Position numbers and translations under genes: made by a program
Notes under the pieces: model-generated
Seen by the model: the letters and a program-made list of their open reading frames with translations, nothing else
Databases searched by the model: none
What the model was told of the DNA's origin: nothing
Part shown: one piece after another, positions 10,575-58,817 of the stretch
How the letters are laid out: the number at the start of each line of letters is the position of its first letter
How positions within the stretch are numbered: the first letter of the stretch is position 1
NCBI GenBank assembly: GCA_029964075.1
Contig: CM057135.1
Coordinates: forward strand, 17,510,863-17,574,862
From: Patiria pectinifera
Lineage: Eukaryota > Echinodermata > Asteroidea > Valvatida > Asterinidae
Direction: 5' to 3'
DNA length: 64,000 nt

Positions 10575-11900
10575 TCATTTATGGTCCGACGAAATTGATT
10601 GGACGTGTCGGCTGTAAATCATCAGGCCGACGTCGGCGGGAATCTGAATCTAACGGGAATCTAACGTCGAATCTAACGGGAATCTAACGTCTAGCGGGAA
10701 TCTAACGTCGGCCTGAAAAACGATAGCTGACGTCGGTGGACCGGCGTCGGCAAAACGGTAACAACCCGACGTTGGCTGTAGGACTGTGCCAGGACTACGG
10801 TTCGACGTAATTGATTGGACGTGTCGGCTGTAAATCATCAGGCCGACGTCGGCGGGAATCTGAATAATATGTCGTCGGCCTGAAAAACGATAGCCGACGT
10901 CGGCGGACCGGCTTCTATAAGTCCTAACGGTTAGCCGTTTTCCCACCAACGTCGGCAAAACGGTAACAACCCGACGTTGGCTGTAGGACTATGCCAGGAC
11001 TACGGTCCGACGTAATTGATTGGACGTGTCGGCTGTAAATCATCAGGCCGACGTCGGCGGGAATCTGAATAATATGACGTCGGCCTGAAAAACGAAAGCC
11101 GACGTCGGCGGACCGGCTTCTATAAGTCCTAACGGTTAGCCGTTTTCCCACCAACGTCGGCAAAACGGTAACAACCCGACGTTGGCTGTAGGACTGTGCC
11201 AGGACTACGGTCCGACGTAATTGATTGGACGCGTCGGCTGTAAATCATCAGGCCGACGTCGGCGGGAATCTGAATAATATGACGTCGGCCTGAAAAACGA
11301 TAGCTGACGTCGGCAGACCGGCTTCTATAGGTCCTAACGGTTAGCCGTTTTCCCACCAACGTCGGCAAAACGGTAACAACCCGACGTTGGCTGTAGGACT
11401 GTGCCAGGACTACGGTCCGACGTAATTGATTGGAGGTGTCGGCTGTACATCATCAGGCCGACGTCGGCGGGAATCTGAATAATATGACGTCGGCCTGAAA
11501 AACGAAAGCCGACGTCGGTGGACCGGTTTCTATAAGTCCTAACGGTTAGCCGTTTTCCCACCAACGTCGGCAAAACGGTAACAACCCGACGTTGGCTGTA
11601 GGACTGTGCCAGGACTACGGTCCGACGTAATTGATTGAACGCTTCGGCTATAAATCATCCCGCCGACGTCGGCGGGAATCTGAATAATATGACGTCGGCC
11701 AGAAGAACGACAGCCGACGTCGGCTGACCGTTTTTGTTTTGGCATGTCGATGAACTGCATTCCCACCAACGTCGGCAAGACGGTAAGAGCCCAACGTCCG
11801 TTTCAGGGACGTTGGTACGACTTCCGTGCGACTGCCTTTGGCCGACTGCGACCATTTACCGACTTTGCCGACTGATCCCCGACTGAACACGACGTCGGGC
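10575..11900. repeat. 205-bp satellite array, about six copies
   Basis: Unit boundaries recur every 205 bp; for example CCACCAACGTCGGCAAAACG recurs at 10,947, 11,152, 11,357 and 11,562. Central copies are nearly identical. The first carries extra TCTAACGGGAA repeats and the last is diverged. Each unit contains several copies of the palindrome-rich motif GCCGACGTCGGC, so each monomer can fold repeatedly. 205 is not a multiple of three, so the 79-residue open frame that recurs in each unit is unlikely to be coding. Confidence 0.95.
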
Positions 11901-18767: not shown

Positions 18768-18776
18768 TTTATCCAA

Positions 18777-20400
18777 TAAAGGACTGAAATAAATTTTGAA
18801 TCGAACATAATAATTCAGACTGTGTTGTACGCATCACACAGTCGGTGAAGTTGTAAATAAACAAGTTTGTATAGCGCGCCTTAATGCGCTGGTTCCCGCA
18901 CGTCATTATAAACGTGTACTAAAACTATGGCATGACGCGCACCAACGAAAACTTCGCGAAATCTCGACGATTGCCGCGTCACTTTTGTGCATTTTTTTCT
19001 TGAAGTATTTTTTGTCAACTACCTGTCCCAGACACAAGAATTTCAAAATTCATTGTAAAAAGAATTTAACTACAGTTGCCATTTATCAGTTATTTTATAA
19101 CCACTGTATCCTCATTGTTTTAGGAGAAAATTTCAGTCCATTTTTCGTGCAGACGTACGACGAAATTAGCACCTCAAAAAACACTAAAACTTAAATGTTA
19201 AATCAGGGACCTCGATTTTATTGAAGGTTTCTCAAAGGTATTAAACACATATATCTTATTTCTTCATAAACAAATACATGTACGGTGAATAACGTGTTTA
19301 AATCTTTGTTTCTTTGTCACGAAAACTACGACACTCTCGCTCGTGGAGAGCGCCATGTTTTCGCGTGACGTCACAATAATTACTGGAGTGAAGATTTTCC
19401 AAACGTACGCGCAGCGTATACTTTATTAATACGCGCGCTACGCATATGAAACAGCCGTGACACGTACGTTACGCACATACATCGTATGTCAGTCAGCCTG
19501 CAGAGCACGTGTTGCCGAGGTCAAATCCTGTCCACATCACAGTGACCGTTTTAGCCGATTTTCGGCTAACTTTGACAGATTTTATGTTCATGCATGCGCA
19601 TAGTCAGGGACGTATCAAAAAAATAATAATGCCGAAAAGCCCTATGTTACGTATTTAAAAGGTGCAGTTTTTCTGCAGTGGGATTTTCCACAAGTCTTTT
19701 CCTATACAACACTGATATCTTACTGAGTAGTTCTGAACTTCAGCCGAGAATTACTTTGAGAAGGAAAGAGAAATCGTATTTTTTTGCGCTGTCATTCAAT
19801 TGAACATATTCCTTAGGGTCAGAATATGAAGTAATATTTCATAAAAATGTTTCAGTTCAAAGGCAAATTACAAATTTAAATTGAACATATTTCTAAGGGT
19901 CAGAATATCAAGTAATATTTCATAAAAATGTTTCAGTTCAAAGGCAAATTACAAATTTAAAGGTGCAATTATTTTGCAATGGGATTTTTTTTAGTCCGTT
20001 AACTTTGTACACGTGTTAGCCCATTGATTTTGTACACGTTTTCAAGCCACCATTTCTATAACTTGGCGATCTGGAATCGTCATCAATGTTACAGCAAAGG
20101 AAGACCCTCATACAAAAGTTATGCCAAGACTATGACGTCATGATGACCTCATACCTAAAGGGCAAAAACCTAAAATTCAACATTTCCCCGACGCAAACAC
20201 ATCTTTGGAAATAAAAGCCTATATCCAATTAGCTGGCATAACTCTGTCAAAATGTAAGTAAAGCAGATTGAAAGTCCTACACATTGCAATGTGCATTGAT
20301 GATCACTTTCATCTAAATCCTTTGTGACATTGTTTCCAAGATATTCTACACATGTTATACTTACAGCTAATATTAGGTATTAAATACTTTTTCCAATCTT
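18777..20400. other. Intergenic, no gene seen
   Basis: Upstream region of the N-RAG-TP-like gene. It contains the short tandem duplication listed at 19,800-19,961 and a related pair AGGTGCA(G/A)TT...GGGATTTT near 19,661 and 19,961. It may hold the element's 5' terminus, but no inverted partner was recognised. Confidence 0.45.
19800..19961. repeat. 81-bp tandem duplication
   Basis: Two adjacent copies (19,800-19,880 and 19,881-19,961) share TTGAACATATT, GGGTCAGAATAT and AAGTAATATTTCATAAAAAT, differing at only a few bases. Confidence 0.95.
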
Positions 20401-24700: not shown

Positions 24701-26077
24701 GTTTTCTCTGTCGGTGACAGACTTTATGTCTTCAAGAGAAACATCCTTGCCAGACATGGAAGCATACAAACTAGGACAAAGAGCATAAAGTCCTGGGCCA
24801 CCGTTTGCAACACTCCAAGTTACAAACTGACCAACGAGCTTATAAAAACTGCCCTGCCGAAAAGTTCGCAATCCCATCTTCTGATGTGTTGAAAACTCCT
24901 GCAGTTCTGACTATCTCCTTCATCAACAGCCTACGAATGAGAATACATTACAAAATGAACAAAAGGGATTAGTAGTCAACTCATGACACACAGATTTTTC
25001 ACCAACACCGGTTGTGGAAGTGACCGGGGGGGGGGCAGTGACCCTCACTAATTCGATAGGGGGCTGGCCTCCCACTTTTTGTGACTCGTTTTCATTTCAT
25101 TTTCGCAACATGTATTTTTTGTCTGGTTTTAGGTCTCATGGTCCACCCAGTTTGAAAATCATTCCACAGCTGCTGGTCACTTAGCCGTACTAGGATGAAC
25201 ACAACCAATTTCTCGTCTCTTGGAAACTGAATTAACAAATTAAACCATACTTTCAGACACACAGTGAAATGTCACTTGCTTTTTTGTTAATAGTGCGGGT
25301 TCACAGGATGTAAAATGTAACTTGATTATCTAAATCGAAAAAGAGGGATTTTATTACAACCAAGAAAAAGAAAAGTTGCCCAAGGTGGGAGTTGAGGTTA
25401 AAAACAAACGGGAATTGTTCCAATGCTTTAACAAATGAGGTATGCATCTCTGACGTTACCGACCGTCCCAAATTGTCAACACTGTTTCAAGGCTGGAAGT
25501 CGGAAGCCATGCAACTAATCTGCCGTCAAGCAATGCATGCACGTGAGGAAACACGGAAAAAAAACTGTTTCATTTTTTATACTTCTAAAAAACCTGTCAA
25601 CTACAAAAACGAGTTGGTACACAACCACATATCCTCATAGATTAATCCCTTTACATCAATCCCTCCAAGTTTGCAGCATCGCCGATGCTGAGTGTATTCT
25701 AAGGTGTGTCCATGGCTGAGTGGCAGATAAGAATTCAATGGGTTCCACCTGGTAACCTTAAAATACAGCATTGACTGGTGGGCCATCCACTAATGTGATG
25801 TAGCTGCTAAAGTAATGGAGTGTCACGATGGTTGAAGAGTCACATTACACCCAGTCAACCTGTTAATGACTGAAAATCACAACACGTACTTGTAAAATTC
25901 CCGCCTTGGTCCACCTCCATCTTCTGCATCTTCTCCAGCAAATCTCACACAGACAAGTTTCCAAAAGGAGTCCGAAGAGACTGCTCTCATCGTTGATGTC
26001 AGCAGACGTCTCCGATGTACTATTATCGTCACAATTTCAGCATCATCACCCACAAAAGTATCAAGTTTCTCACATAC

Positions 26078-26122
26078 CACAGTGGTTTAAAACCCTACCT
26101 GACCCAGACATCAGCAAAAACA
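26078..26122. repeat. Left terminal inverted repeat of the RAG1-like element
   Basis: Heptamer CACAGTG at 26,078-26,084, then GTTTAAAACCC, nine extra bases, CAGACAT, and an A-rich GCAAAAACA starting 29 bp after the heptamer. The A-rich block loosely resembles an RSS nonamer, but the spacing is neither 12 nor 23, so I do not call it an RSS. Confidence 0.8.
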
Positions 26123-28007
26123 GGGGAGTTATGTTCATGTACAATCAATATAACAATTTAGCAAGTGTTTAGAACTTATTTAGAGTCTTCCTGAGCGTCA
26201 TGGGTTCTCAATTCGGCCTCAGAAAGACGTCTCTGCAAGGATCGCTTCGAGGGAGCGCGCTTCAACGATAGCGCCCTCTGTTGACAATTATTTAATTTTT
26301 GCAAAGACAGAGCACCATGGCCGCGCCGCGCCGTACCGCACCGCCGCGATAATAAAATAGAAATGTTCGTGCATTATACAAAGGCAGTTTTATTTTAATA
26401 CTTTTAATTTCAACATAATAGTACAGGGAATGAGTGGAAAAGGAAGTGACAAAAAGAAACAAATGCTAAATCTGAGAGGTATGATTTTAATAAAGTGATG
26501 TTCTTGTCTAGTCTCAGATTTTTAAAATTGTGAACACCTTGTTTCTTCTTGGTATAAAAAATAAAACGCAAAAACCATGTATTGATTGAAACACAGTGGA
26601 TGAACATCGACAGTGGCATTCTCTTGATCGTTTCTCTGGGAAGCGTTAAACTTACCTGTTCGGAAATGGTTTAATCTAGACAAGAAAGGAACTGAACAGC
26701 TCGTCCTCAACGTGTACTCCAAAATCTGCTGTTTTCTTGGGACAAGATCGCACGTGATGATCGCCGTCACAGTATGTACATTTCTTGATGTGACGAAACG
26801 AGCGCACGACTGGGTCTGATTTCAACCAGAGACGATGAAAAACATCAGTCAAATTGTCCTCTTGTGTGGTTTTGCGAGACAGGTGTTCTCGATACCTGCG
26901 GATATTTTTGTTGTTGTTCTCCAGTGCCTCTTCAGACAGTGTTCCCAAGCCGCAGCTCTTGTTGCCTGCAATTAGCTCTGAACTGTGGGCTAGAACCTGG
27001 TGAACGGAGGGGGTAAATTTGAAGCTAGGGAACTGTTCGAGAAACACTCGGCTTGTATCCTTGCAAAGTGAATCAAGCTTATCTGAATTTACAAAGTCTG
27101 AGCACGAGACTAGACGCAGAATAACTGACATGTTTTTGACGATCTGGCCAAATTGTGTCCTGTCTTCACCCCTGTCCGGGACGCAGTTGATCAGAGCTTG
27201 GCGTATGGGAATATCATGGAGCAAACGCTTGCTAATTGGACCTGTCGTCGAGGTTCCGCCTTTCCTACGGGGTCGGGCTCGTCCACTCGTATTCCAGTTC
27301 GTTCGTATACGGAGGCCCTCACGTTGTCTTTAGCCCTTTTGATTTTAGCTTCATTTTGCAGGTTTTCCTTCCAGGTCCTTACACCAGCACTTAAGTGGTA
27401 GATGACCTTTAGAGTCCAATCCATTGTACGAAGAGTAGCATGGAGGATAGGAAAGACCTTAATGTCACATGTTGTTATGGGTTTCTGGGTAAGTCCCCGT
27501 CGTTCAGCATAATCACCAGGTTTTGGCTTAATTTCCCCCTTGTCAAATTAAATTCAAATCTGAAGTGATATGATGCACCAGAGATGTTGATCTCAATTCC
27601 AGTAGTTGACAGAGCTGTTTTTTCTGCTTCAATTGGAGGTATGATTGATTTTAGGAGCTCTCTATCTTCTTTGCCCTTCACGAGGAATAGGGGAACAGCA
27701 GCCTCTGGACTATTGGCTGCGCTTTCCTTCCACACGGTCAATCCTGCAGGTGTTGACAAAATTATGAATTACAAATCAATTAGTGTATTCTTTATAAATG
27801 TACGGTACAGAAAAGTGAAACAAATTTAAACAACTCTACTCGGTTAACTTCAAAATGTTTACTTGAAATAAACAAACATACATGTAGGCCTACATTTAGT
27901 TCAATAGATATAATGAACGTACCTGATGCTTGGGATGACCCCTCTCCAGATGAACTTTCTCCAGATGGACCAGCTTCTTTGATGACTTCCAGCAGTATCC
28001 ACATATA

Positions 28008-28280
28008 TCGTCGGCGTTTTCACGAAGTGGCGAATCCGTCCAAAATCAGGGTTTTTTGCAATTTTGTTTTTTGGGCTATTTTGACATAACTATGTCTCCT
28101 TAACATTTCTGCAAAGTTTTAAGACTGGAAAATGTTTAATTACTTAGTTACGCTAATTGCATAAGTGGCGAATCCGTTGCCCTCTGCATTTTGCGTTTTC
28201 ACGAAGTGGCGAATCCCCGATTCGCCACTTCGTGAAAACGCGCCATGGTCTTCCCGCGTTTTCACGAAGTGGCGAATAAA
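28008..28280. repeat. Left terminal and subterminal repeats of the 11-kb element
   Basis: TTTTCACGAAGTGGCGAAT occurs at about 28,017, 28,195 and 28,258, and inverted at about 28,218-28,240. The copies at 28,195 and 28,218 form a head-to-head palindrome. A partial AAGTGGCGAATCCG lies near 28,163. These look like transposase-binding sites. Confidence 0.9.
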
Positions 28281-28366
28281 CCTTCATCTCAGGGCTGCTT
28301 TATAATATACCATTACGTTGCGCGTGCGGCAACAGCAGTACGTGCTTGACTTCACCTCGTACCAAC

Positions 28367-31300
28367 ATGGCTGCGAGAAACCTGGGGAGAATGTCCGGAG
28401 AAGCAGGTAACAACCAACCCTTAAGTTCTGGCATTTTCCGTCCTATATAACTGTGATTTTTTTATACTGTCTTGATAACCTTTATTTCTTTTCGAAAAAT
28501 GCAAGTTAAAGAGTTACGCAACAGTTAACGTTGCTGTGTCGGTGTGTTTTTCTTGCACGAAATACGTGTCGGAAATACACGCTTTATGTATTACGTGCTG
28601 TGTACATGGTGTAGGGGAGGTACTGCAAATGCCGTGCTCGTACTATCGACGGCGATAGCCCCTAATGCATCGATTGTTACTTAGGCCGATTATGTTAAAA
28701 TATGTTGGACGTCATGAATAAAAGATAGAAGACATTTTGGAAAGAATGTTGCATCCTTTAGCGGTTGTGTTCTTCTATGGAATGGAGAGTCAACATGTTA
28801 CAACATGTACAATACATCACCATGATCACCCCTGGTCAAGAAAATGTTCTCACAAAATTGGAAATGGTTCTCAGATTCTATTCTTTTTAAACATATTTTT
28901 GCATGCTTGACCTTTATTTTATCCTATCTGGCAACATCCTTTCTGGCATATCTGAGTAGAGTAGGCCTACTGTCATGACTGTCAGCAGTCAGTGATACAC
29001 AGACATGACAGATAAGATAAAACAGTCAACTTTTCAACTAGCTTGAGTAGCTCCAGCTTTAAAATAGTCTAATGCTCATCGCTGGAGCTACAGCTACGAT
29101 AAAAACTATGCCTACGTACTGGCCATTTCATTGTGGGTATGAAAATTTGTTTACGTTATCATCTGCAGGGTAATGTAGATTGTAGCTACAGGTGGTCTTC
29201 AACATGTTCAAGCATGTCAAGGATGCAGAAACAAACAAAAAATGTAAGTAAAAATATCATGTTTCTGAGATTCAAGTCTTTTCCAACATATTTTTGCACG
29301 ATTGACCTCTCTCTATGGAGAAGATACATTAACAACAAAAAGGCGTCAGATTGCAACATCCTTCGGAAATGTTATCTTCTGGCATGTCTGAGTACTGTCA
29401 GTGTCACACAGTTAAGATGAAACAGTTTCAACTTTTCAACTAGCTTGAGTAACTCCAGCTAACCCCAACAGTCTTGAATCCTCCAATTTTAATACGATTT
29501 TACATACCCCTAGGGAGTTAGGCTCATTGCTGGATACAACTACATTATAAAAACTATGCGTACGTGCTGGCCATTTCATTAAAGAGTATGACAATTTGTT
29601 TACGTTATCATCTGCAGGGTAATGTAGATTGCAGCCTAACGGGTGGTCTTCAAGAATGCTGAAACAAAAAACGTAAGTTGAAATGGATCATGTTTCTGAG
29701 ATTCAAGTCTTCTCCAACATATTTTTGGATGATTGACCTCTATGGAGAAGATACATTAAGAAAAAAAAGAGGCGTCGGATTGCAACATCCTTCCGAAATT
29801 TTACCCTCTGGCATGTCTGAGTACTGTCAGTGTCACACTGTTAAGATACAACAGTTTCAATTTTTTTTACTACAGCTTGAGTAACTCCAGCTTTAATAGT
29901 CTAATGCTCATTGCTGGAGATACAACTACGATATAAAAATGTGTACGTGCTGTCCATTTGATTGTAAGTGTGAATATTTCTTCATGTTATCATCTGCAGG
30001 GTAATGTAGATTTCTACTTGTGTCTGGTAGCCTAACGCCTGGTCTTCAAAGATGCAGAAACAAAAAACTTAAGTTGAAATGGATCATTAGCCCAAGTCTT
30101 GTCAACCTGCATATTGTGTGTATCAATTTAATTAGTAGGAAATTGGGTACAGCCAATCTATAAATAAATGACAATAGCAGGTGAAAAAGTCTGTGCACTC
30201 CCCTGATGTCACTTGTTTGACATAGTCTTCCCTGACAATTTTTTTTTAGGTCGATTCCAGATCGAGATGTGCTCGTCCAGTGGGAAGATAATTCAAAGAA
30301 TGTTGTAGCTGTGAAGGACTTGTCCTTTTCAACTGGGAAACTCACACAGGGTGCAACGGTTTCCATGAAATGGGAAGGGACAACATGGATGGGACATGTT
30401 TTGGACATCGATGACTGCTCATCATCTGAAGACGATTATGATTCAGACCCTGATGCGGATGTTCCCTTGTCAAAGCTCCTCAAAAAGAAAGGAGGTAGGC
30501 TTTATCTGTTCAGACTGTGCTTTATTTGGCTCTGACTATTGATGTGCATCTGGTCGTGTTAAAGAGGCCAAACCGACCAGAGACATTTATTTCATAAAAC
30601 AGAATCCAAACCAAATCCGAACTGGACTACCTAAAACCGACCCTACCTGACCTGACAACAATTCAAATAAATTGAACCGACCCGGAACCGAACCAACCAG
30701 AAAAAAAAACCGAATAAGTGGCTTCGGCAAATGTGTCCACTTTTTGCGCCTGAACTGTGACCTACTTGTGGGCCTACATAATATGGATTGTTGAAACAGA
30801 CAGCAGACCATTTTTAGTCGCACCGCGCAGTGATTCTTGCACTATAATTTTCGGCTTCGGGTCGGGTTTACACAACATTAGCTCTGACTTGATAAGTAAT
30901 ACAACAGTATAGTTTAAATTTGGCGTACATCTACAGAATGCTTGCAAAATGGGTCAGTGTGGTGCACTTATTAGTGCCCTAGTAATTCATAGGCATTCGG
31001 TTTGATTAACATGAAGTCCATCCTGTGACAATGGCAAGAGCTAGGTGTTGTTCACAATAAGAAGTAATTTTAAGACCTGCACCCGATTTCACTTAACGAT
31101 GCGACGTGTCGCAACTCGAGTTACGGTGTGTAACACATCGCAAATCGCGTTCCTTGACAACGGCTTTAAACATGTCGCAAGTTACGTGTTTAGTGGTCAT
31201 CGCAATACAAGAAGAGTCCTTTTCTTAGCCTGTTTTATGCCTGAAACATCACATAAACAAGATTATAATACCGAGGCAATATGCGTAAAGTTGTAAATAG

Positions 31301-34300
31301 AAAATTAATTGAATAACTATGAAACAACCTGGAATATTGCAGTTTAAATTTCAAAGTAGCTATACAGTCGACTGAGAGCTTGTTTTCCTTAAAAGTTGCA
31401 TCACACGGCCGCCATTTTATTTGACGTTTTTAACAATTTTTGGGCGGAGATCCGCCAACTCTTTGTTGAATATCAGACGACTATTTACTGTACGCTGACT
31501 AAAGACATAAAACAGTCACCGAGTTGTGCTATAATACACCTATGACGTGTCGCACTTAACGACGTGTTTTGTGAAATGGATTGCAGGACGCGTCGCAGCT
31601 GCGACGCATCATAGAGATACGACGTGTCGCAGCGCTGCAATGCATCCTAAGTTACAAAGAGTTTGATGAAATCGGGTGCAACACACACACAAAAATACTT
31701 TAAAAATCAGTCACTCTTTTTAAGCTGAATTTTCTACATTATTTAAATTTGAGCCTTTACTGCTGTTAACTGATATTTTTTCCCCGCGAAAACATGCTCA
31801 TTAACACATTTATGTTTTCTTCTTTCATTTTATCTTCAGTTGACGATTCACATTCCACTAAGGACCTGACACCAGCTTCCTGTGATAACTTCTTCTGCAA
31901 TCAAGAAGTATTTGCAGCATGCAATAAGTGCTTGTGTTTTTTGTGCTTTGACCATTTTGAAACAAATGACAGATGCACGTCGCATAATGTTCATCTTTGT
32001 GCTTATAATGTGAATGAACAGTTTGCAATTGAAGGTCAAACTGAAGTAGATCACGATCACACAAGGCCGTTGTGTGTTTGCGTACCCAACTCTGTTGCTG
32101 AAGTTCCAATACCAGACATATCTGAGACACAAATTCTAAGGACCAATAACAAACCTTCATCTCAACTCATGCCATCAGTTGGGTCCTTGCCAACTTTCAG
32201 TAGCTGCAGTGAAGCTGCATTACCTACATCTATGTCTGTTGGTTCGTCACCTTCACTTTCAGATGCTGTGAAGGCTCAGATAGTTTCGGCTTGTCTCAGT
32301 GCACTCCAAAGCACCAGGGAGAGATTTGTGTCATCTTTGCCTGTTTCTAGTGCTGTTGATGATGTACATTCATGTTCAAGCATTCTTGATCCTGTAGAGA
32401 TATCTAGATGTGAACTGTTCCCAGTTGGGAGTCATCTTACTCCGACTGTGCCAACTGAGGGGTCCTTGCCATCAGTTGGGTCCTTGCCAACTTTCAGTAG
32501 CTGCAGTGAAGCTGCATTACCTACACCTAAGTCTGTTGGTTCGTCACCTTCACTTTCAGATGCTGTGGATGCTCAGACAGTTTCGGCTTGTCTCAGTGCA
32601 CTTCAAAGCACAAGGGAGAGATTTGTGTCATCTCTGCCTGTTTCTAGTGCTGTTGATGATGTACGTTCATGTTCAAGCATCCTAGATCCTGTAGAGTTAT
32701 CTAGAAGTGAAATGTTCCCAGTTGGGAGTCATCTTACTCCGACAGTGCCAACTGAGGGGTCCTTGCCATCAGTTGGGTCCTTGCCAACTTTCAGTAGTTG
32801 CCGTGAAGCTGCATTACCTACATCTAAGTCTGTTGGTTCGTCACCTTCACTTGCAGATGCTGTGGTTGCTCAGACAGTTCCGGCTTGTCTCAGTGCACTT
32901 CAAAGCACCAGGGAGAGATTTGTGTCATCTTTGCCTGTTTCTAGTGCTGTTGATGATGTACGTTCATGTTCAAGCATTCTTGATCCTGTAGAGTTATCTA
33001 GAAGTGAAATGTTCCCAGTTGGGAGTCATCTTACTCCGACAGTGCCAACTGAGGGGTCCTTGCCATCAGTTGGGTCCTTGCCAACTTTCAGTAGCTGCAG
33101 TGAAGCTGCATTACCTACATCTATGTCTGTTGGTTCGTCACCTTCACTTTCAGATGCTGTGGATGCTCAGACAGTTTCGGCTTGTCTCAGTGCACTTCAA
33201 AGCACCAGGGAGAGATTTGTGTCATCTTTGCCTGTTTCTAGTGCTGTTGATGATGTACGTTCATGTTCAAGCATTCTTGATCCTGTAGAGTTATCTAGAA
33301 GTGAAATGTTCCCAGTTGGGAGTCATCTTACTCCGACAGTGCCAACTGAGGGGTCCTTGCCATCAGTTGGGTCCTTGCCAACTTTCAGTAGCTGCAGTGA
33401 AGCTGCATTACCTACATCTATGTCTGTTGGTTCGTCACCTTCACTTTCAGATGCTGTGGATGCTCGGACAGTTTCGGCTTGTCTCAGTGCACTTCAAAGC
33501 ACCAGGGAGAGATCTGTGTCTTCTTTGCCTGTTTCTAGTGCTCAGCAGCCGAGACCAGATGACTTTCATGTGGATGGGGAGCCAAGGGTTTTTGATCCAC
33601 TTCCAGCAAAACAAAAAAGGAGTCGGAATTCATTGGTGAAAAAGCAAAGGAACAGGGGCCTTGCTTACAGCTCTGAAAAAACGGACAAAGAGATGCCAGC
33701 AAGGAGAAATAGCTCAATAGAGACACCTTGCATAGCCTGCAAGGCAAGAAATCTAGGATGTTGCAAGATAACACAGGATGAACGCAAGTTTCTCCGAAAT
33801 ACCTTCTATGATCTTGGAGATTTGCAGCTCCAGAGAGAATGGTTGAATCGTCATATACAAGTAAGGCCTCTTACTAAAAGAGATGGCAGGAAGAGACTTA
33901 CACGTACATATTTTCTTCCTTGCGGCAATGATGGTTTTCATAAGAGGGTTGTTTGTCGCCTGATGTTTCTGAGGACTCTGGGTATTTCAGAACGGCAAGT
34001 ACGAACAGTAGTGGAGAAACAAAGTCCGTTTGGTACCTTTGATGGGGAGAAGAGGGGCGGTAGACAGAAACCGGAGAAAGATGAACAACTGAGGGCTGAG
34101 GTAAAACAGCACATAAATCTCTTTCCTCGGATGGAATCACATTATTGCAGGGCAAACAGTAAAGCTCAGTATCTTTCCTCTGATCTAAACTACCAAACAA
34201 TGCATAATATGTACAAACAGACCCATCCAAGTGGTGCATCATTGTCGCTGTACAAGTCCGTCTTTAAGGCAATGAATTTAAAATTCCACCAACCCAAGAA

Positions 34301-35318
34301 AGATCTGTGTGGTTTGTGCGATTCGTATCGCCGTGGAACCATGGAACAGAAAGAAAAGCTGAGAGAAGACTACAACAGGCATCACTCAGAAAAAGAGAAG
34401 GTGAGGGAATGTAAGAACATAGCAAAACAGAGAGCAGTAGGTGATACTAAGTTTTGTGCTGCAGTATTCGACCTACAGCAGGTCATTTACCTTCCAAAAT
34501 CCACAAGATCTGAGCTGTTTTATAAACGGCGTCTAGCTTGTTTTAACTTCACATTGTATGATCTTGGAAGCAAGGAGGGCTTTTGTTTTCTTTCGCATGA
34601 AGGACAGACCAAGCGAGGCGCATCTGAAATTGCTTCGCACATTCATCGGTTTCTACAGTTTGCAGATGACAGAGGAGTGAAAGAGGTGAGCTTGTTCAGT
34701 GATGGATGTGTCGGGCAGAATGAAAACTCAATTTTGCCCGCAATGATGTTGTACTTTGTAGGAATCTCAAAGTCTGTAGAGGACATAACTTTGTCCTTTT
34801 TTGAGACCAACCACGGTCAGTCAGAAGGCGACTCAATGCACAGTTGCATTGAGCATGCAGTCAAGCAAGTAAGCGAAATAGTAGTACCATCTCAACTTCT
34901 AACCATATGCAAAATGGCAAGGAAGTCTCCTAGTCCATATCACACCACTCCAGTCAAGTCTTCCGACATTGTAAACTGGAAGTTATACAGCCAACAGAGG
35001 GGAATGCTTCGAGTTAGATCATCAGAAGATGGGAAGAATATCGACTGGACAAAATTCATGGTAATTAAGCTGAAGAAGTCCAAGCCGGATGAAGTGCGAT
35101 TCAAATATTCCCATGCAGATCCAGAGTTTTCTGTTTTGAGAGTTGGTAGCACACGCCGCAGTGGGGATGAAGCAGTTGAACCAAGTGTGCTGTACCACCT
35201 GGGACCTCCAAAAATCCCACAGGCAAAATATGATGACCTGCATAGTTTATGCACAGGGAGAACGCCTGTAGTAAGCCATCCCGATTACCAATCTTTCTTC
35301 TCTAATCTGCCACACTAA
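28367..35318 (+). CDS. DUF7869-like putative transposase, three exons, about 1,250 aa, intact
   Basis: Exons 28,367-28,406, 30,261-30,494 and 31,840-35,318 join in phase (1/2 and 1/2 splits) to 3,753 nt. The start is ATGGCTGCG after ACCAAC. Domains: residues about 15-65 form a Tudor-like small beta module (VLVQWEDNSKNVVAV, VSMKWEGTTWMGHVLDIDD), then an acidic patch. At about 100-145 is a B-box-like Cys/His cluster (CDNFFC, CNKCLCFLC, DHF). At about 200-660 lie 4.6 copies of a Ser-rich 99-aa repeat. A basic linker is followed by zinc-type CIACKARNLGCC and LCGLCDSY. The C-terminal RNase H-like core has AAVFDLQQV (Asp about 969), LFSDGCVGQNEN (Asp about 1046) and NHGQSEGDSMHS (Glu about 1087). 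That D-D-E spacing is what a cut-and-paste transposase would show. DUF7869 is the domain name I recall for this core; catalytic activity is inferred. Lying between matching TIRs, it is probably the element's own transposase. The alternative acceptor at 30,250 does not keep phase with exon 1. Confidence 0.85.
28860..30065. repeat. Three tandem copies of an about 420-bp unit in intron 1
   Basis: Markers recurring in order are GCTTGAGTA(G/A)CTCCAGCT (29,041; 29,441; 29,875), ATCATCTGCAGGGTAATGTAG (29,158; 29,607; 29,990) and AAAAA(C/T)(G/T)TAAGT (29,240; 29,668; 30,064). Copies are clearly diverged. Each has an acceptor-like CTGCAG. The first two keep a donor-like GTAAGT about 80 bp later, framing an exon-like block. 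I could not fit any of these blocks into the reading frame of the flanking exons. Confidence 0.85.
31078..31681. mobile_element. MITE-like insertion in intron 2
   Basis: The left end TGCACCCGATTTCA (31,079-31,092) is mirrored by TGAAATCGGGTGCA (about 31,667-31,680). The interior has GCGACGTGTCGCA-type motifs near both ends (31,101; 31,545; 31,621). About 600 bp, no coding. It must be removed by splicing with intron 2. Confidence 0.75.
32171..33541 (+). repeat. In-frame 297-bp coding repeat, 4.6 copies
   Basis: GCCATCAGTTGGGTCCTTGC recurs at 32,171, 32,468, 32,765, 33,062 and 33,359, exactly 297 bp (99 codons) apart. Copies differ at only a few positions. Each unit encodes a Ser/Pro-rich, probably disordered segment with SVGSLPTFSSC, ACLSALQSTRERFVSSLPVS and SCSSILDP. 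The last unit stops after LPVSSA. High identity implies recent unequal exchange or gene conversion. Confidence 0.97.
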
Positions 35319-37204
35319 ATTGTACAATATTTTGTACAGTTGTTCAAATGGTATCTTAATTTTCATCTTTAACATGGTTGACTATAGCTCTAAAATCTCT
35401 TATTTGTAAAGGTTTTAGTACTTCACAATACCACTTTCAAAAGACGTTTTTATGTATACTTTTCCTCAGCAAACGCTCCTACTATTTCATCAGTCACAAA
35501 CAGTCAACATTTCATCCTTTTCCCGTGCTATACTTTTAACACAGGCTAGTCATCAACAGTCAGATCAAATTAACAGCAACACTTTGACTAATCAAATCGA
35601 GTCAATAGACAAAAGCAAGCAACTGGCAAGCACAGCTGTCTTATCGATATGCATCTGTTAAGGAGAATACATGAGAAAGTATGGATTTGTAATTTAAGAA
35701 TTGACGAGGCACGAAGCGCCGAGTGAATATGTAAATTAAGAATCCACACTTGCGAGTGTTTTCTTTGACTTAAACCATTGCGTCAAAATAAGTATTGTAC
35801 AGTCCAGTGAGTGGAGATGAAAAGACTTGCATACCTCAAGTCGAGTCATGGTAATTACAAGTGAATTACAAGGGAGCTTTTCGAGGTTCTTAATGTCAAT
35901 CAAGCATTGTGGCATGTTTAGCATGTATATCGCCACACCAGTACAACCAAGTCATTTTGTGTGTAGGTTCCTTATGTCAACATGGACAGTTCAGACGAAG
36001 ATTTTTTTCTGACTCAAAAGTAGTTTTTGCAGTGACGGTGGAGAATCTGACAGTGAAGATGCATTGGTGATTTTCGGAAGGAAAGTTTTCATGCAGACGG
36101 TCATATTAATGCTCATTATGTAGAACAATTGTCTGACATGTTCAAAGTGTGGATTCGTAATTCTGAATCCACACTTTTAACAATAGCATGACATCATAGC
36201 ATTGGTTTAAGTACTAATGACGTCACACTTTGTTTACATGTGCACTTTTCTATGGAGCCAGTGGGGGCCCAGGGTCAGCAGGGCACCACAGGAAAGTACA
36301 AACAAAAACAAAGTGTGATGTCTTTAGTACAGAGGGTTATTGCCAACAGTCAATACATAGCTGTCGGCCAATCGATCCTGCTTTATACCATCGAATATAC
36401 TAATTAAGGTAGGCTGGGAGCTCTTAATTGTTAAAACGAGTCGTCTGACTGAAAGGACAACTTTCACTGAATGGCATCTTGTCTGGCAAGCTTGATCCAG
36501 GTTCATATTATTGTGAGCCTGCAATTTGTAAATTGTACCATGTAACGTTGTAATGTTCGATGTTTATAATTTATGTTTTACATTTGCCAGGTGGCCAGTT
36601 GTCACTAGCTTATTATCAGTTCAGGTTTTGAATTGACTGAAGAGTTTTAAGGAGGTTTCAAACAAATTCCTTTTTAAAATTTCAAAAAAAAGTTGTAGCC
36701 CTCATGATGTTGCACATTTTGTACTCGTATTAAAACTAGGATCATAATTGGTCAAGATTTTTTTCGTTCTTGAATTTGACAGAGATGAAATTTATCATAT
36801 TTCCTTGCCTCCTTGCACAAGTCTTATATTGTCATCTTATATTAAATTCCAACATGCAAAATATTATGTTATGCAGTGCATATTATGTTAAATGGAGTAT
36901 ATTTTAGTACATCTACCTCAAAAACAGTGTCAGGGGAAAAAACCAATGCTCACCCTTGTCTACTTTCAGAGCAGTTTACATTATTTTATACATTGCCCCG
37001 ATTATTGCTGAGTGTATGTCAAGTAGATTTTAATTACAGATTATATTTATTTCAATCAAAATTTGAACCGAGGTTGGAAAATCATTTTAATGAATTTAGT
37101 AACATAGACGTCGGATTATACCCGATTTTTATTAAAGGGAAGATACCACATTTGCAAACATCAAAAAAATAAAACTACCAAATTATTTTGAAATACTTTG
37201 CTGG
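35319..37204. other. 3' flank inside the 11-kb element, no gene
   Basis: AT-rich. Holds partial repeats of GAATCCACACTT near 35,740 and 36,165 (the latter beside its inverse AAGTGTGGATTC at 36,145). No supported exon, RNA gene or polyadenylation signal was singled out. Confidence 0.5.
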
Positions 37205-37660
37205 ACTGTTAGTGAATGACAGTCTAAAGCATCCTGTAAAATCATGGCACCTGGTGTACTGTCATTTTCAAGAAAAGTGGTATTTTCGTATCAATTTCCA
37301 ATGCTGGTCGGCCAACCAGCGTTGGAAATAACCTGGCTTTTTTCATATACTGGCCCTAATTGACCATATTTAGTTAGTCTGCATGTGTTTGCAATCGCTT
37401 ACATACCTATGAAACGGTACAGGCCAGCTAGACTGGTTCCCAGACCTTACAATTCCCCAATGTTTATTAATTGCTCCGTTTCATCTTCAACGGAGTCAGG
37501 AAACTAGACTACAGGAAAATGATTGTTTTCTTTGTTTTTATAGCATGTACGAACCAAAAACAAAAAAGCAGTGTAACAATATTTGCTAAATATTACCAAC
37601 CCCCAAATTAAATCCACTTCTGCAAATTTAAGCAAAGGCAAATAATGCATATTACCTTTA
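37205..37660 (+). repeat. Dispersed repeat, copy 2 (copy 1 at 1-480)
   Basis: Collinear with 1-480, with moderate divergence and small indels. Shared blocks include ATGGCACCTGGTGT, CAGGCCAGCTAGACTGGTTC, GGAGTCAGG and AGTGTAACAATATTTG. It lies inside the 11-kb element, so it either inserted there or is a captured piece. Confidence 0.75.
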
Positions 37661-37664
37661 AGGT

Positions 37665-38075
37665 TGTGTACTTGAACTGTTTAATAAACTTTTTTAACAA
37701 TGAACTCTTTAAACAATGAACATTTTAACACAGAGATAATATAACAAATATTCGATTGAGATTGATAAAGGCTTTGTTGTACTCATTTGTTTTGTAGATA
37801 ATTGTACAATACGCTCAATGAAATTTGCAATACTTACACCTGATTTATTAAAAGAAAACGAGAATAATTTAATTTTCATTAAGGCTCTGTAATTGAACTG
37901 TTTAATAATTTTGTTTAACCATGAACTCTATAAACAATGAACATTGTAACAGAGATAATATAACAAATATTCGATTGAGATTGCTAAAGGCTTTGTAATA
38001 CCCATTTGTTAAGTAGATAATACGCTCAATGAAATATGCAATACTTGATTTATAAAAAGCGAACGAGAATTTAAA
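37665..38075. repeat. About 210-bp tandem duplication
   Basis: GAACTGTTTAATAA, AACAATGAACAT, AGATAATATAACAAATATTC, GATTGAGATTG(A/C)TAAAGGC and ATACGCTCAATGAAAT occur in the same order in 37,674-37,880 and 37,893-38,070. Confidence 0.85.
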
Positions 38076-38574
38076 GTGCAGGGTTGTTTTTTTTTACAGT
38101 AGATCTTGTTTTTCTGAATCTCTTGTTGAGAGATTACTGTTTTAAAAAGGAAGCGAATTCTTGTTAATTCCTGAATTAAAAAAAAAATAAGATGATGGCA
38201 TTCTAATAAATCCGAAATTCTCCATCAATATCACCTTGTTATCTGTGTGTGTGTGTTTTAGATGCACTGGAGTACATTGTTGTAATAAGCATTCATTTTT
38301 GATTAACGCACCGCCAGCATTAATTTGGTTGAAGTAATATCATTTCTGCAGTGGGCCCGTAATAATGAACAATAATCTGTAGCTCCCGGAAGACTGCCTT
38401 TTTCAAAAAAGCAATTGTGACTAAAGCATACCCACATACCATCCGCAGCCCGCGGTACCCACTCCACTCCACCCGGCCACACCCCGTGTACAAAATCTCC
38501 CCCCCCCCCTCCTCCCCCTCTCCTCCCCCAAAAAAAGAGTCAATGAAATCAGTGCCTCGCACGTTATTAGGCTG

Positions 38575-38822
38575 ATAATTTTGGCGAATCTATTGACCTC
38601 GGCGTTTTGCGTTTTCACGAAGTGGCGAATCAACGCGCTGTGTGTGGCGAATGTGTTCAGGTCTGCATTTTGCGTTTTCACGAAGTGGCGAATCCGCGCG
38701 CTGTGTGTGGCGAATCATTGACCTCTGCGTTTTGCGTTTTCACGAAGTGGCGAATCGTGCGCTGTGTGTGGCGAATCCGATGAGGTCTGAATTTTGCGTT
38801 TTCACGAAGTGGCGAATCCTTT
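38575..38822. repeat. Right subterminal array, four direct copies
   Basis: GTTTTCACGAAGTGGCGAAT starts at 38,611, 38,674, 38,736 and 38,800, a period of 62-64 bp. Between copies sits GCGCTGTGTGTGGCGAAT, so GGCGAAT recurs about every 30 bp. The array ends 190 bp before the right TIR. Confidence 0.95.
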
Positions 38823-39013
38823 TCTTAATGAACAGCTCTTTAATTACACATCCAAGGGTAGAAATGTGTATATAGTCATGTTATTTAACTAATGAGCTAT
38901 CGTATCAATGGAAAATATTTTGAAATTTGTATTAAAAGTGGGGCGAAATGACAGTTTCAAAAAGTGACCAACTTCAAAGTGGTTTTTCTCAAAACCCAGT
39001 GTGCGTGCTGCGT

Positions 39014-39047
39014 GGACAGATTCGCCACTTCGTGAAAACGCCGACGA
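39014..39047. repeat. Right terminal inverted repeat of the 11-kb element
   Basis: Inverse of 28,008-28,041 with one mismatch in 34 bp. It is followed by TATA, which also precedes the left end. Confidence 0.9.
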
Positions 39048-41094
39048 TATAATATCATGCTATATGTCTGAGCCTGTCCTTTCTGGTGGTAAATGGAATG
39101 GCGCCCCGATCCATCAAGTCCGTCTTTGCAGAGAACTCTATACTGTCCTGGTTGAATTTCTGGATGAGCTTCTATTAGTCTTTTCACATGTATGCTGCAT
39201 GATTCTTTCAGAGAAGCTGTGATACCTTCGTTGTCATCAATGCTATAAGGCTTTAGTTCAGGAGTGATATAATTCTTCTTTTCCATCAACTTGTAGTGGG
39301 CTGGGAGTGTCACGTGCTCATTTAAATCACGTCTGAGATTAGTGTACCCCGTCCTTCCGATATTGTATGAAGACAAAATGTAAAGTCCTTTGTCAACAGA
39401 CATCTCCTTATCAACCAATGACTTGTTGAAAAGCTTCAACCCAACATCCGCTGTTTTCCTGTTGCTGATATAGTTTTCTTTGTGCAGCAAATATCCCATA
39501 AGCTGAGTTGCAGATATTCCATTTTCTTCAGCTTCCTCACGCAAATCGTGTAATAAGGAGTTTGTCCTTCGAAACCGCTGCCGTGGACCTACTTCGTCAA
39601 GGGGAGCCAAGTTTGGACGATCACACTGAGTTTCTTGGTCTCTACGGTTGTCTGGTGACCCCAAGGATGACACAGATGAAAGATTGAGAGCCTCTACCAC
39701 AGTCAGTGACGATGTGTCCACCATCAGTTTTTCCTTGTCTTTTGGGGTGATTTTCAAGAAAGGCTCATCCAACATTTCTTCGAGTTGTTCTTTCCCCTGT
39801 GAACGTCCAGTCTCTTTCAATTTGTTTTTCCATTCTAGGCGAAGCTTCTGAATTCGTCGTGTGATTTTTTCTTCAGTGTGTTCGGTTCCCGCAAGATCAT
39901 AGTCTTGGATTATTTCCCTTGCAATCCCAACGTAACTTGGCCTCTTCCGCCCAACCCATTTTCCCTCAAGTACTTTTCAAGTATTTCCCGGTTTGAAAAG
40001 GACAAACACAATTTGAGAGGCTGATGTATTTTTTTAGTATTATTTACTTCTCAGAATATTTTGTGAAAAAAGTCAGTAACCCCTAAAAAAAACCACACAA
40101 ACTTGTTCAAACATTTTATATTCCACAAGCAAAGAGCTGAGTTCTAATAAGATACTTACTTGGCCTAGCGCCAAGCAGTTTGCAAAACACTCTTATCATA
40201 TTCGGCCTTGCCAGGCCTAAAAACAAGCACAGACTGCAGGAAATGATGTCGTTTCGCTGACCGCGCCTAGTGTGGGCCTACACCAAAAAGTTGTAAAAAG
40301 AAAATTATGATAAAGTCTCTTCATCTCTGCTTCTATCTACATTTCCCATGACAAAGAAAACCATGAACAGCTAAATTTCTTCAACTATAAATCCCAGCCG
40401 AGCTGACTTTCAAGCCCTGAGATAACCACTAACCTCCGTAAACAATTGTCAGAAGTCCACAAGCGACGACACTGAGCTCGGCGATACAGCGACATGCAGT
40501 ACGCTAAAAACATCTCAACAAAAGAGGACGCTGTTCACTTCGTCGGCCATGACAGCGTTTTACGTACTCCCAGCTAGTGACTGCTTACAAAAATGATTTT
40601 TTTTTTCGGCACAACGATGCATTGCGCGACTTTTCCGGTCAATTTTATTTAAAACCGAGTAATCAGTCGACCGATTTCTGAAGAAATTAGACAATTTTAC
40701 TTTGGCCGTTTTCGGCCGATTGTAAAAATGTATCAGCGAACACGTCTTGTTTTTTGGGGGAATATTTCTACATAATTTAGCGTAAGTAAATCCCTGAATT
40801 TCTGCACTTTATGAAACATTTTTTTCATAACAAATTTTATATGAGTGGAAAGGGTACGAAACAAGCTACAAGATGATGCGCAGCTTTTGATCTGAAAATA
40901 TAATTTCGGCATTGAACAACTCTTTTTTTTTTGTTTCCCAAAGTACCTACTGTAATAATTCTAACCATCTTCTAGTTTTGTGTAGCTGTGTACTTACGTG
41001 AAATATGCAGCAAATAAGTTGGAAAAATATTTTTATCCGCTACAGATTTACTCAGTAGATACAACTAAACAATTTTTTAGCATAATATTCAGAA

Positions 41095-41134
41095 TTTTTT
41101 TTTTTTGAAATGTCTGGGTCTTAAACCACTGTGG
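41095..41134. repeat. Right terminal inverted repeat of the RAG1-like element
   Basis: Read inward on the minus strand: CACAGTG, GTTTAAGACCCAGACATTT (19 bp), then CAAAAAAAA. It matches the left end except for the 9-bp length difference. Confidence 0.8.
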
Positions 41135-43573
41135 CATACACCTGTAAGTGCATCATCCCCGACGCCATGTCTATTGAAGATGAGCACAGTGAATGTAAAG
41201 TAGTCGTGATATGCACAAAAATGATAATGCTATTATTTTACAGCATGTCATGGTGTGGATTGATATGACCACTTCCAACCACAGAAAAGACCAAAGCAAG
41301 TAAACTTAATTGTTTGTGTGCTCTGGCTTGTTCATTATCCACGATTATAATGGCAGAGTGGTTTAATATGATTTATTAACAGTTGCAAATTCAAATTTTA
41401 CTACTGGATACTTTTTTTTTGGGGGGGGGGGGTAATCACAGATAAAGAACTGGGTTGTTGTTTGGAGCTAGCTATATAGTGACTTCAGTTATCCAGGCTA
41501 TTCCTGTCAGTTATTACATGGTGTTAATGAAAAAGTTTAAGAACTTTTACTATGTAGGAGGAAAAGTTCAAGTATTTGGTAGTGTGAAGAAAACCACTGA
41601 GAAAACAATACAGAAAAAAAATCGGAAAAAGCGCTTTGGGACCAAGACAACCCAGTATACATTCCCTTGTCCTGACTTATAGCAATTACGTCCCATGTGC
41701 AAGGTGGGAAAAACAAAAAATGCCACCAACCAAAAAAAAAACCCTTTCCATATATTATAACTGTAGGATTCACTCATGTGGATATTCAGATTACTCTAAC
41801 TGGAAGTAGAGGGGGTAACAAAGATATACATGAAAATTGAAAAAAGTACAAAAAATGACACAGTTTTCAATGTGCACCAGTCCGTCTAAAGTGATAACCT
41901 TTGTTATTAACTTTATAAAAACACATACCCAGTGATCTCTTGATGTTCCTCATCAATTAGACTTGCCTCAATGGCAAGTGCAATGTTAGCATCTTCTGCA
42001 GTCTCATCAAAAAGGGTTAAGTAGGCTTCATATGGCTCGTCAGTTGCATCTCTTGCCCTCGGTAAAGAGCTCCATGCTGTGTTTCATCTGTTATCTAACT
42101 CTAAGGAAAAAAACATTCATGACAAACACATGTAACAGAAAATAAGAATAAAAAACATGGTAACTACCGATACCGGTTGCAAAGGAAGGAAGCAATCCAA
42201 AGGCTTAATGCTTGTTCACAAAAACAATTATTGACCCTAAAAACCTCGTCGGGACTTTAATTCTATTGACTTGCAGCCACGTGTTTAAAAGTGCAGGTGT
42301 GGACCTCCCAACAAAACAGGTCTTCATAATAATGTAGGGCTTACAGACAAAGTATGGACTCACACAGGTCCACACTTAAAGGCAATTTGGGGTCAGGGTT
42401 ATCTCTATAAAAAGGAAGAGCATCAATTCAGGAAATCGCTATTAAAAGTCAAGCTCAAAATAGTCATAATTGAGTGTGAAAAAAAGAGAATTTTCCCGGA
42501 GTGTTCTTGACTAAAGGGGAACAAAGGAAAGCCCACAATATGTATGTGAAACAAGTATTTATGTCCACCACCCTGTTTGTTTCTGACAAAGTGATGACAT
42601 TCTTACTCTCATTCATCTGTGATGATTAGGAATGTGGTAAATGCTTTCTTCAGGGAAGGAATACTTTTTAAATTTAGGATGTACAGAAATAAGGAAAGCA
42701 ACATTTAGTTACACTCAAAACACTTACTCTTCTCAGTTCACATGTGGATGAAGACTCCACAGTACCAGTAGACTCTTTGGATCTTATAGGTGTTGCAGTT
42801 TCTGCGCGACTGCTGACGGAATAGCCTTTCTCTGTGGTCATCGACGTAACCAAATATAACAGATGACACGTGACACAAATTTGCCTGTCAACAATTGGGG
42901 TGTTGACTTCCCGTTTAATCTGTGTATAAATCAATAAAATGTTTGTGACATAAATTCTGAAGTGTCAGTGTGTTACAATAAATCAAGGATACAATGCAAC
43001 GTACATAACCCAGCGTTTCAAAGCACATCATTAAATACTGTCCACAATTTGGCAAGAAATTAGACTAAAACAATCAGACTTATAAACTACAAAATATGAA
43101 CTTACGACTCTGCCGAGATAACCGGCTATCCAGCGGCAGAAGTGCAGCTACAAATCGGTAACTACGTGTACATTAAGTCATGTTGACATTGACAAAATGT
43201 CTTCACAAAAACAATAATGTCTGGCGAAGCTAAATACGAGCCGTTGTAGTTAACACCGCACCATGTGCCTCACACGTGAACACGTTGTACATGTACAGAT
43301 TGCATGACACACTTCAAGTGACCTGGAAAGTATATACATTTTGGGCGCGCATTCCGATAAACAGTGCATCGCTAGGTTACGTCTACAGACTTAATGAATG
43401 AATTATGAAACCAAGGTCAAAGGTAAACCTACTACAGTTTGACAATGTGCGCCTGCGTTACACAGGTATGTAGGGTACTTCATCAATACCTTCAGGGTCA
43501 GAAATAGGACTATCCTGCAACAGAAAAAGCAATAGATCGTAACTCTACTGAACAACATATGTGTAATTGTCTA

Positions 43574-58640: not shown

Positions 58641-58817
58641 TACCTCATAGTACGGGCCCCTGAGTCTTGCGGGAACGAAGCAAAGTTTAATTTGCTGTAG
58701 GCCCCCACCCAGATTCAGTATATCCCGTGTCGCCCTGCTGTATTGACTGGAGGCAGCCCTGCGCTGTCCGCCTTGATCTTCGAAGGTACGGTAAAATGGG
58801 AAGTAATCGACCACTTC

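What the first reader, a model, noticed from the sequence alone, without database searches (positions are those of the whole stretch)
26078..41134. RAG1/Transib-like transposon whose ends begin with the RSS heptamer CACAGTG
Both termini start CACAGTGGTTTAA. The gene has segments that parallel RAG1 around Asp600, the PLCLM...LTAILSPL stretch and Glu962 (SEEALENNNKNIRRYRE). Heptamer-like ends plus a RAG1-core-like recombinase are the expected signature of the transposon lineage from which V(D)J recombination arose.
Basis: partly seen in the sequence, partly recalled or inferred. Interest (0 to 1): 0.85.

Follow-up and report, generated by a model that had tools for sequence, protein, structure and literature searches.

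The report
Broken Transib transposon with lopsided ends
This is the decayed copy of a Transib transposon, a relative of the element behind vertebrate antibody-gene rearrangement, split in two by a second transposon; it belongs to a known family, and its most interesting trait is a pair of unequal ends.

Summary
A 15,058-bp element (26077-41134) has 14-bp inverted ends and a 4-bp (CATA) or 5-bp (CATAC) duplication. Its minus-strand gene is RAG1-related. An unrelated 11,048-bp transposon (28004-39051) sits inside; without it the element is 4,010 bp.

The C-terminal part matches the solved Transib transposase 6pqn (HzTransib) at E 9.4e-18, against 0.0027 for RAG1L (6b40) and 0.019 for mouse RAG1. 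A 5-sequence, 82-column tree puts it outside the RAG1/RAG1L clade (support 99). No RAG2-like partner was found. It is therefore a Transib, not a RAG or ProtoRAG element. It is dead: at least three frameshifts, the nested insertion, and a damaged second-Asp/zinc region.

Three traits lean, weakly, to the 'Subgroup I' Transibs of PMC9435367: a middle block that matches vertebrate RAG1 but neither 6pqn nor 6b40, a C-terminal CCHC knuckle (not significant), and asymmetric ends (13-bp and 11-bp blocks separated by 10 bp on one side, 0 bp on the other). The asymmetry may be private to this copy. No RSS nonamer exceeds chance. New member of a known kind.

The parts
26073..26076 (+). left target-site duplication CATA (CATAC, 26073-26077, in the 5-bp reading)
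   Evidence: sequence; repeated at 41135-41138 (41135-41139 for CATAC)
26077..26090 (+). left terminal inverted repeat CCACAGTGGTTTAA, containing the RSS-heptamer string CACAGTG
   Evidence: exact inverted match to 41121-41134
26091..26100 (+). 10-bp spacer AACCCTACCT present only in the left end
   Evidence: comparison of both ends
26101..26111 (+). second shared end block GACCCAGACAT
   Evidence: exact inverted copy at 41110-41120; 13 of 20001 random pairs of 32-mers share 11 bp or more
26679..27266 (-). transposase piece C: catalytic Glu (aligned to HzTransib E436; codon 26919-26921), HxxxxH zinc ligands
   Evidence: phmmer 6pqn E 9.4e-18 on ORF 26676-27329; alignment A1; codon checked
26742..26780 (-). 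C-terminal CCHC zinc knuckle CTYCDGDHHVRSC
   Evidence: the 7 PDB sequences listed for 26679-26810(-) are eIF3G, LIN28 (5) and a nucleocapsid protein; best E 0.25, not significant
27269..27538 (-). transposase piece M3, in another frame; LHA... aligns to 6pqn from chain residue 255
27541..27743 (-). transposase piece M2, RAG1-like block (PLFLV...IEAEKTAL...FRFEF)
   Evidence: 15 of 16 PDB sequences listed are vertebrate RAG1 chains, best E 0.0019; 6pqn and 6b40 (RAG1L) not listed
27744..27922 (-). GT-AG intron, 179 bp, phase kept
   Evidence: read from sequence and three-frame translations, ends checked; no transcript evidence
27923..28004 (-). transposase piece M1, directly beside the nested insertion
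28004..39051 (.). nested unrelated DNA transposon (inverted ends 39 bp, 97%; flanking TATA or TA), interrupts the transposase gene
   Evidence: inverted repeat I2; junction sequence
31770..35318 (+). 1182-aa ORF of the nested element, weak DUF7869 match, in-frame 297-bp tandem repeats
   Evidence: Pfam E 0.0047, below cut-off; repeats
39047..39946 (-). transposase piece N1: N-terminal region with GPRQR and the first catalytic Asp (aligned to HzTransib D126; codon 39113-39115)
   Evidence: 6pqn chain 9-123 aligned to residues 204-313 of the joined pieces, weak on its own (i-Evalue 4.9); codon checked
39949..40008 (-). transposase piece N0, in another frame from N1; start of the protein not determined
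   Evidence: three-frame translation
41110..41120 (-). second shared end block GACCCAGACAT, adjacent to the right TIR with no spacer
41121..41134 (-). right terminal inverted repeat CCACAGTGGTTTAA
41135..41138 (+). right target-site duplication CATA (CATAC to 41139)

Best explanation
It is a fossil copy of a Transib-superfamily cut-and-paste transposon, about 4.0 kb before a second transposon inserted into its gene. When alive, its single RAG1-core-like DDE transposase would have bound both ends, nicked 5' of the CAC of the heptamer-like terminus, formed hairpins on the flanks, and joined the excised element to a new site with a short duplication (mechanism inferred from HzTransib and RAG). 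The C-terminal zinc knuckle would have helped to bind the end just inside the heptamer, as the CTT* of amphioxus RAG1L does (inferred). Within Transib it more likely than not belongs with the RAG1-nearer Subgroup I (about 0.6). Shown here: ends, duplication, gene homology, breaks, nesting. Inferred: mechanism, role of the knuckle, subgroup.
For: 6pqn (HzTransib; the name is recalled, the entry is labelled putative DNA-mediated transposase) is the best solved-structure match: E 9.4e-18 for the C-terminal ORF, 3.6e-21 for the joined pieces. Pfam RAG1 E 5.5e-9 for the joined pieces. On a hand-aligned 82-column block it shares 30 of 81 residues with 6pqn, and the RAG1/RAG1L clade excludes it with support 99. 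The first Asp and the Glu fall on chain residues 109 and 419 of 6pqn, which both differ by 17 from the catalytic D126 and E436 reported for HzTransib (residue numbers from a passage of PMC6941560). Both ends plus duplication plus second block: 1 of 55 pairs in the window, 0 in 60 shuffles. No second gene seen: the stretches outside the transposase pieces are 602 and 1,126 bp and none of 10 ORFs tried from the element gave a Kelch, PHD or other significant Pfam match. Subgroup I traits: RAG1-like middle block, knuckle, asymmetric ends, compared with PMC9435367.
Against: The duplication is not a clean 5 bp around CACAGTG ends, as Transib would predict: it is CATA with CCAC ends, or CATAC with one extra G. 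It is also not GC-rich, the bias reported for these elements (PMC8289069 passage). The second catalytic Asp and the CxxC of the zinc domain cannot be placed: from the nearest candidate Asp to LHA there are 33 residues, against 49 in 6pqn if D225 is chain residue 208. The N-terminal piece alone has no PDB or Pfam match. Only one copy was available. For the subgroup: the RAG1-like middle block does not list RAG1L 6b40 either; the knuckle is CX2CX3HX4C rather than the Cx2Cx3GHx4C of RAG1L, its matches are not significant, and 6b40 is not among them; asymmetric ends also occur in Subgroup II.
Confidence: 0.9

Rival explanations
1. It is the remnant of a RAGL (ProtoRAG-type) element that once carried RAG1L and RAG2L.
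For: Middle block matches vertebrate RAG1 and not 6pqn; zinc knuckle at the C-terminus, as in RAG1L; asymmetric ends as in ProtoRAG (PMC8289069 passages). In the 82-column block it is nearly as identical to RAG1L (27 of 81) as to HzTransib (30 of 81).
Against: By score the C-terminal block is far closer to HzTransib (BLOSUM62 154 against 87 on 72 common columns) and is excluded from the RAG1/RAG1L clade at support 99; no second gene found; no RAG1-type N-terminal zinc region matched in the pieces of this element.
Confidence: 0.06
2. It is a Chapaev-type element: 4-bp duplication with CAC ends.
For: CATA can be read as a 4-bp duplication. That Chapaev uses 4 bp is recalled, not tested. A Chapa/RING-like gene lies nearby at 17727-18833.
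Against: Direct, strong match of the catalytic region to HzTransib with SEEAxExxNK, HxxxxH and SDP motifs; [quoted passage not shown] The Chapa/RING-like gene lies outside the TIR pair.
Confidence: 0.03
3. The element is a Transib, but the asymmetry of the ends is a private 10-bp deletion or insertion in this one copy, not a family trait (compatible with the best explanation, against the novel reading).
For: The left end has ACCC repeated 10 bp apart, so slippage could remove 10 bp; the copy is decayed; no further perfect copy of the ends is in the window.
Against: All Subgroup I Transibs are reported to have asymmetric ends (PMC9435367), if this is one; the right end differs by one base from the simplest slippage product.
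Confidence: 0.4

Closest known systems
HzTransib (Helicoverpa zea Transib; PDB 6pqn; Subgroup II by implication of PMC9435367, which does not say so in the text read)
   Same: Single transposase, catalytic first Asp and Glu, HxxxxH, SEEAxExxNK motif, heptamer-like ends
   Different: Here the protein is longer before the first Asp (at least about 298 residues against 125), has a CCHC tail that did not align to 6pqn, a middle block that hits RAG1 and not 6pqn, and asymmetric ends (HzTransib ends are called symmetric in a passage of PMC8289069)
Transib Subgroup I (Tao et al. 2022, PMC9435367)
   Same: Zinc-bearing C-terminal tail, asymmetric ends, closer to RAG1 than Subgroup II
   Different: Not compared by sequence (no member available); alpha11-alpha12 region not assessable because that stretch is damaged here
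AanRAGL of Aureococcus (PMC9435367)
   Same: Ends made of a 13-bp and a 10-bp element with unequal spacers (4/13); here 13 bp and 11 bp with 0/10
   Different: Different sequences; AanRAGL has RAG1L and RAG2L and 5-bp duplications
ProtoRAG of amphioxus
   Same: CAC heptamer-like ends, asymmetric ends, zinc knuckle tail
   Different: Two genes; spacers 27/31; transposase in the RAG1L clade

Membership tests
Transib superfamily | RAG1-core-like DDE transposase closest to Transib | tested here: met
   6pqn E 9.4e-18 / 3.6e-21; tree of 5 short rows
Transib superfamily | all three catalytic acidic residues | tested here: inconclusive
   first Asp and Glu align; second-Asp region frameshifted and shortened
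Transib superfamily | TIRs starting CAC with heptamer-like sequence | tested here: met
   CACAGTG at both ends, possibly one base inside the true end
Transib superfamily | 5-bp target-site duplication | tested here: inconclusive
   CATAC/CATAC only if the right end carries one extra G; otherwise CATA, 4 bp
Transib Subgroup I | CTT1 zinc tail (Cx2Cx3GHx4C in RAG1L) | tested here: inconclusive
   a CCHC knuckle is present but as CX2CX3HX4C; its PDB matches are not significant and do not include RAG1L
Transib Subgroup I | asymmetric TIRs | tested here: met
   10/0-bp spacer between the 13-bp and 11-bp blocks; single copy; also found in part of Subgroup II
[quoted passage not shown]
   that stretch is shortened and frameshifted in this copy
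Transib Subgroup I | phylogenetic position | not tested
   no Subgroup I sequence reachable; scans confirmed no relative
RAGL / ProtoRAG | RAG2L gene convergent to RAG1L | tested here: not met
   no Kelch or PHD match among 10 ORFs tried; 602 and 1,126 bp outside the transposase pieces
RAGL / ProtoRAG | transposase in the RAG1L/RAG1 clade | tested here: not met
   support 99 for a RAG1/RAG1L clade that excludes it, on 82 columns and 5 rows
V(D)J RSS | A-rich nonamer 12 or 23 bp from the heptamer | tested here: not met
   best left match 7 of 9 at 29 bp, reached by 10.9% of 5000 random 60-mers; best right 6 of 9 (poly-A, at 22-26 bp among others), reached by 43.7%
Chapaev | Chapa/RING domain and Chapaev transposase in the same element | tested here: inconclusive
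   no Chapa/RING match in the Transib pieces; no Chapaev profile available

The most novel reading that the evidence does not exclude
A RAG2-less Transib of the RAG1-nearer branch whose two ends are built from the same two recognition blocks, set apart by 10 bp on one side and 0 bp on the other, about one helical turn of difference, so that a 12/23-like pairing rule existed before RAG2 and before the A-rich nonamer.
Probability: 0.15. Interest if true: 0.6.

Novelty: new member of a known kind. Interest (0 to 1): 0.33.

Why it matters
If the 10/0 asymmetry is shared by intact copies, it adds a lineage with unequal, two-block ends to those already reported (AanRAGL 4/13, PMC9435367; ProtoRAG 27/31 and some insect Transibs 12/23, passages of PMC8289069 and PMC8355894), in an element without RAG2. 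The origin of the 12/23 rule could then be tested with an element outside the RAG line. As a single dead copy it is a normal fossil transposon.

Tried and rejected
RSS nonamer: best matches are not above chance. Other copies of the ends in the window: 6 matches with up to 3 mismatches, the two perfect ones included, against 8.8 expected by chance; the nearest other one (41353-41366, 2 mismatches) was not pursued. Relatives: scans of viral contigs and genome contigs matched some short patterns but confirmed no relative, and one TIR pattern scan found nothing; these collections are viral and prokaryotic, so this says little. The nested element's ORF part also found none. NCBIfam and PHROGs gave nothing for the 4 pieces tried. 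AlphaFold of the N-terminal piece from a single sequence was unusable (mean pLDDT 41.9), so no fold search was made. A nonamer-binding-like GPRQR stretch in the N-terminal piece is suggestive by eye only; the search with that region gave no PDB hit. No paper naming this element turned up in searches (listings only, capped), but the host is unidentified and many Transib descriptions are outside the library, so this is not evidence of novelty. The 2005 paper that defined Transib is not held.
Full report
Observation. CACAGTGGTTTAA stands at 26078 and, inverted, at 41121-41133, and nowhere else in the window. The inverted match is 14 bp, CCACAGTGGTTTAA, from 26077 and to 41134. Outside it lies CATA on both sides (26073-26076 and 41135-41138). 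Taking the C at 26077 as flank instead gives CATAC on both sides, but then the right end of the element carries one extra G. The heptamer alone is common (16 occurrences), and exact inverted 13-mers alone are common (55 pairs at 1-25 kb distance against a shuffled mean of 22.8). Only 1 of the 55 pairs has both a duplication of 4 bp or more and a second shared block of 10 bp or more, and none did in 60 shuffles.

Anatomy of the ends. Inside the shared 13 bp both ends carry GACCCAGACAT, at 26101-26111 and, inverted, at 41110-41120. On the left 10 bp (AACCCTACCT) separate the two blocks; on the right there is no spacer. A match of 11 bp or more between random pairs of 32-mers of the window was seen in 13 of 20001 pairs. 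Both ends then run into A-rich sequence, but no match to the RSS nonamer exceeds chance: the best left match (7 of 9, spacer 29) is reached by 10.9% of 5000 random 60-mers, the best right match (6 of 9) by 43.7%. The left end contains ACCC twice, 10 bp apart, so a private slippage deletion on the right cannot be excluded.

Gene. The transposase is on the minus strand in pieces: N0 39949-40008, N1 39047-39946, M1 27923-28004, a GT-AG intron 27744-27922 (179 bp), M2 27541-27743, M3 27269-27538 and C 26679-27266. Frames change between N0 and N1, M2 and M3, and M3 and C, so there are at least three frameshifts. Between N1 and M1 lies a different transposon, 28004-39051, with 39-bp inverted ends (97%); without it the element is 4,010 bp. 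This copy cannot encode a working transposase.

Homology. The ORF 26676-27329 matches 6pqn (HzTransib; species names of PDB entries are partly recalled) at E 9.4e-18, 6b40 (RAG1L, amphioxus) at 0.0027 and mouse RAG1 at 0.019. The joined pieces match 6pqn at 3.6e-21, 3jbw (zebrafish RAG1) at 9.6e-9 and Pfam RAG1 at 5.5e-9; the C-terminal ORF alone stays just under the Pfam cut-off (E 3.5e-5). In a 5-sequence tree of a hand-aligned 82-column block the RAG1/RAG1L clade excludes the element with support 99. In plain identity the contrast is smaller: 30 of 81 residues with 6pqn and 27 of 81 with RAG1L; by BLOSUM62 on 72 common columns it is 154 against 87. The block is short and the tree has no Chapaev or Subgroup I sequence. 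The first Asp (codon 39113-39115) and the Glu (codon 26919-26921) align with chain residues 109 and 419 of 6pqn, both 17 below the reported catalytic D126 and E436 (numbers from a passage of PMC6941560), though the N-terminal alignment is weak on its own (i-Evalue 4.9). The HxxxxH zinc ligands are kept. The second Asp and the CxxC cannot be placed: the stretch is frameshifted and about 16 residues shorter than in 6pqn.

Which Transib. Three traits lean to the RAG1-nearer Subgroup I of PMC9435367 (whole text read). First, the middle block M2 hits vertebrate RAG1 chains in 15 of the 16 PDB sequences listed (best E 0.0019); neither 6pqn nor RAG1L 6b40 is listed. Second, the C-terminal tail looks like a CCHC zinc knuckle by its PDB matches, 7 of 7 listed being eIF3G, LIN28 or nucleocapsid, though none is significant (best E 0.25) and RAG1L is not among them. 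RAG1L tails are Cx2Cx3GHx4C (PMC7204232 passages); this one is CX2CX3HX4C. Third, the ends are asymmetric. Asymmetric ends also occur in Subgroup II, so this trait is weak alone. The alpha11-alpha12 trait cannot be read here. I put Subgroup I at about 0.6.

Not a RAG element. Outside the transposase pieces the element has only 602 and 1,126 bp. ORFs there were listed, and 10 ORFs, the longer ones of these together with + strand ORFs over the gene, gave no significant Pfam match (best E 0.083). The Transib pieces show no RAG1-type N-terminal zinc region. The Chapa/RING-like gene at 17727-18833 is outside the ends.

Mechanism. By homology to HzTransib and RAG, the living element would be cut by nicking and hairpin formation and pasted with a short duplication. 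This is inference; nothing here tests activity. The duplication (CATA or CATAC) departs a little from the clean, GC-biased 5 bp reported for this superfamily (passages of PMC7204232, and PMC8289069).

Limits. No genome is held for the window, so no second copy could be examined. The host is unidentified; the surroundings (retroelement ORFs and several DNA transposons) and the intron suggest an animal, which is inference. Passages only were seen of PMC7204232, PMC8355894, PMC8289069, PMC6941560 and PMC4411706.

Noticed in passing
17727-18833 (-): A 368-aa ORF resembling the N-terminal part of RAG1: a Chapa-like zinc region followed by a RING. The RING itself is not specific (best hit TRAF6, E 3e-5; RAG1 1rmd E 0.0013; 74 sequences matched, 60 shown), but the part without the RING hits only the RAG1 N-terminal structure 21wb among 177635 PDB sequences (E 0.06). 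It lies 7.2 kb outside the Transib, on the same strand. Possibly a Chapaev or N-RAG-TP type element; its ends were not found.
   Followed up: partly
28004-39051: Nested transposon with TCGTCGGCG... ends flanked by TATA or TA, subterminal repeats with AAGTGGCGAATC units at both ends and an 1182-aa ORF with a weak DUF7869 match (E 0.0047). No paper in the library holds the word DUF7869.
   Followed up: partly
32170-33657: Five copies of a 297-bp (99-aa) repeat within the nested element's ORF, copies 2-4 95-97% and copy 5 70% identical to the first.
   Followed up: no
7108-8889 (-): Adjacent ORFs; 7108-8004 has a DUF4218-like match (E 6e-5, below its cut-off), perhaps part of a DNA transposon.
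   Followed up: no
54007-58859 (-): Endonuclease and reverse transcriptase ORFs (54007-57114) and a further ORF with a reverse transcriptase match and a GIY-YIG-like stretch by eye (56784-58859), i.e. non-LTR and perhaps Penelope-like retroelements.
   Followed up: no
10745-11730: Tandem array of a 205-bp unit, 4.8 copies, 95% matches, with internal GTCGGC inverted repeats.
   Followed up: no
13631-14514 (-): ORFs possibly belonging to a transposase core downstream of the Chapa/RING gene; the one searched in PDB (13631-14002) had no meaningful match, and neither had a Pfam match above cut-off.
   Followed up: partly
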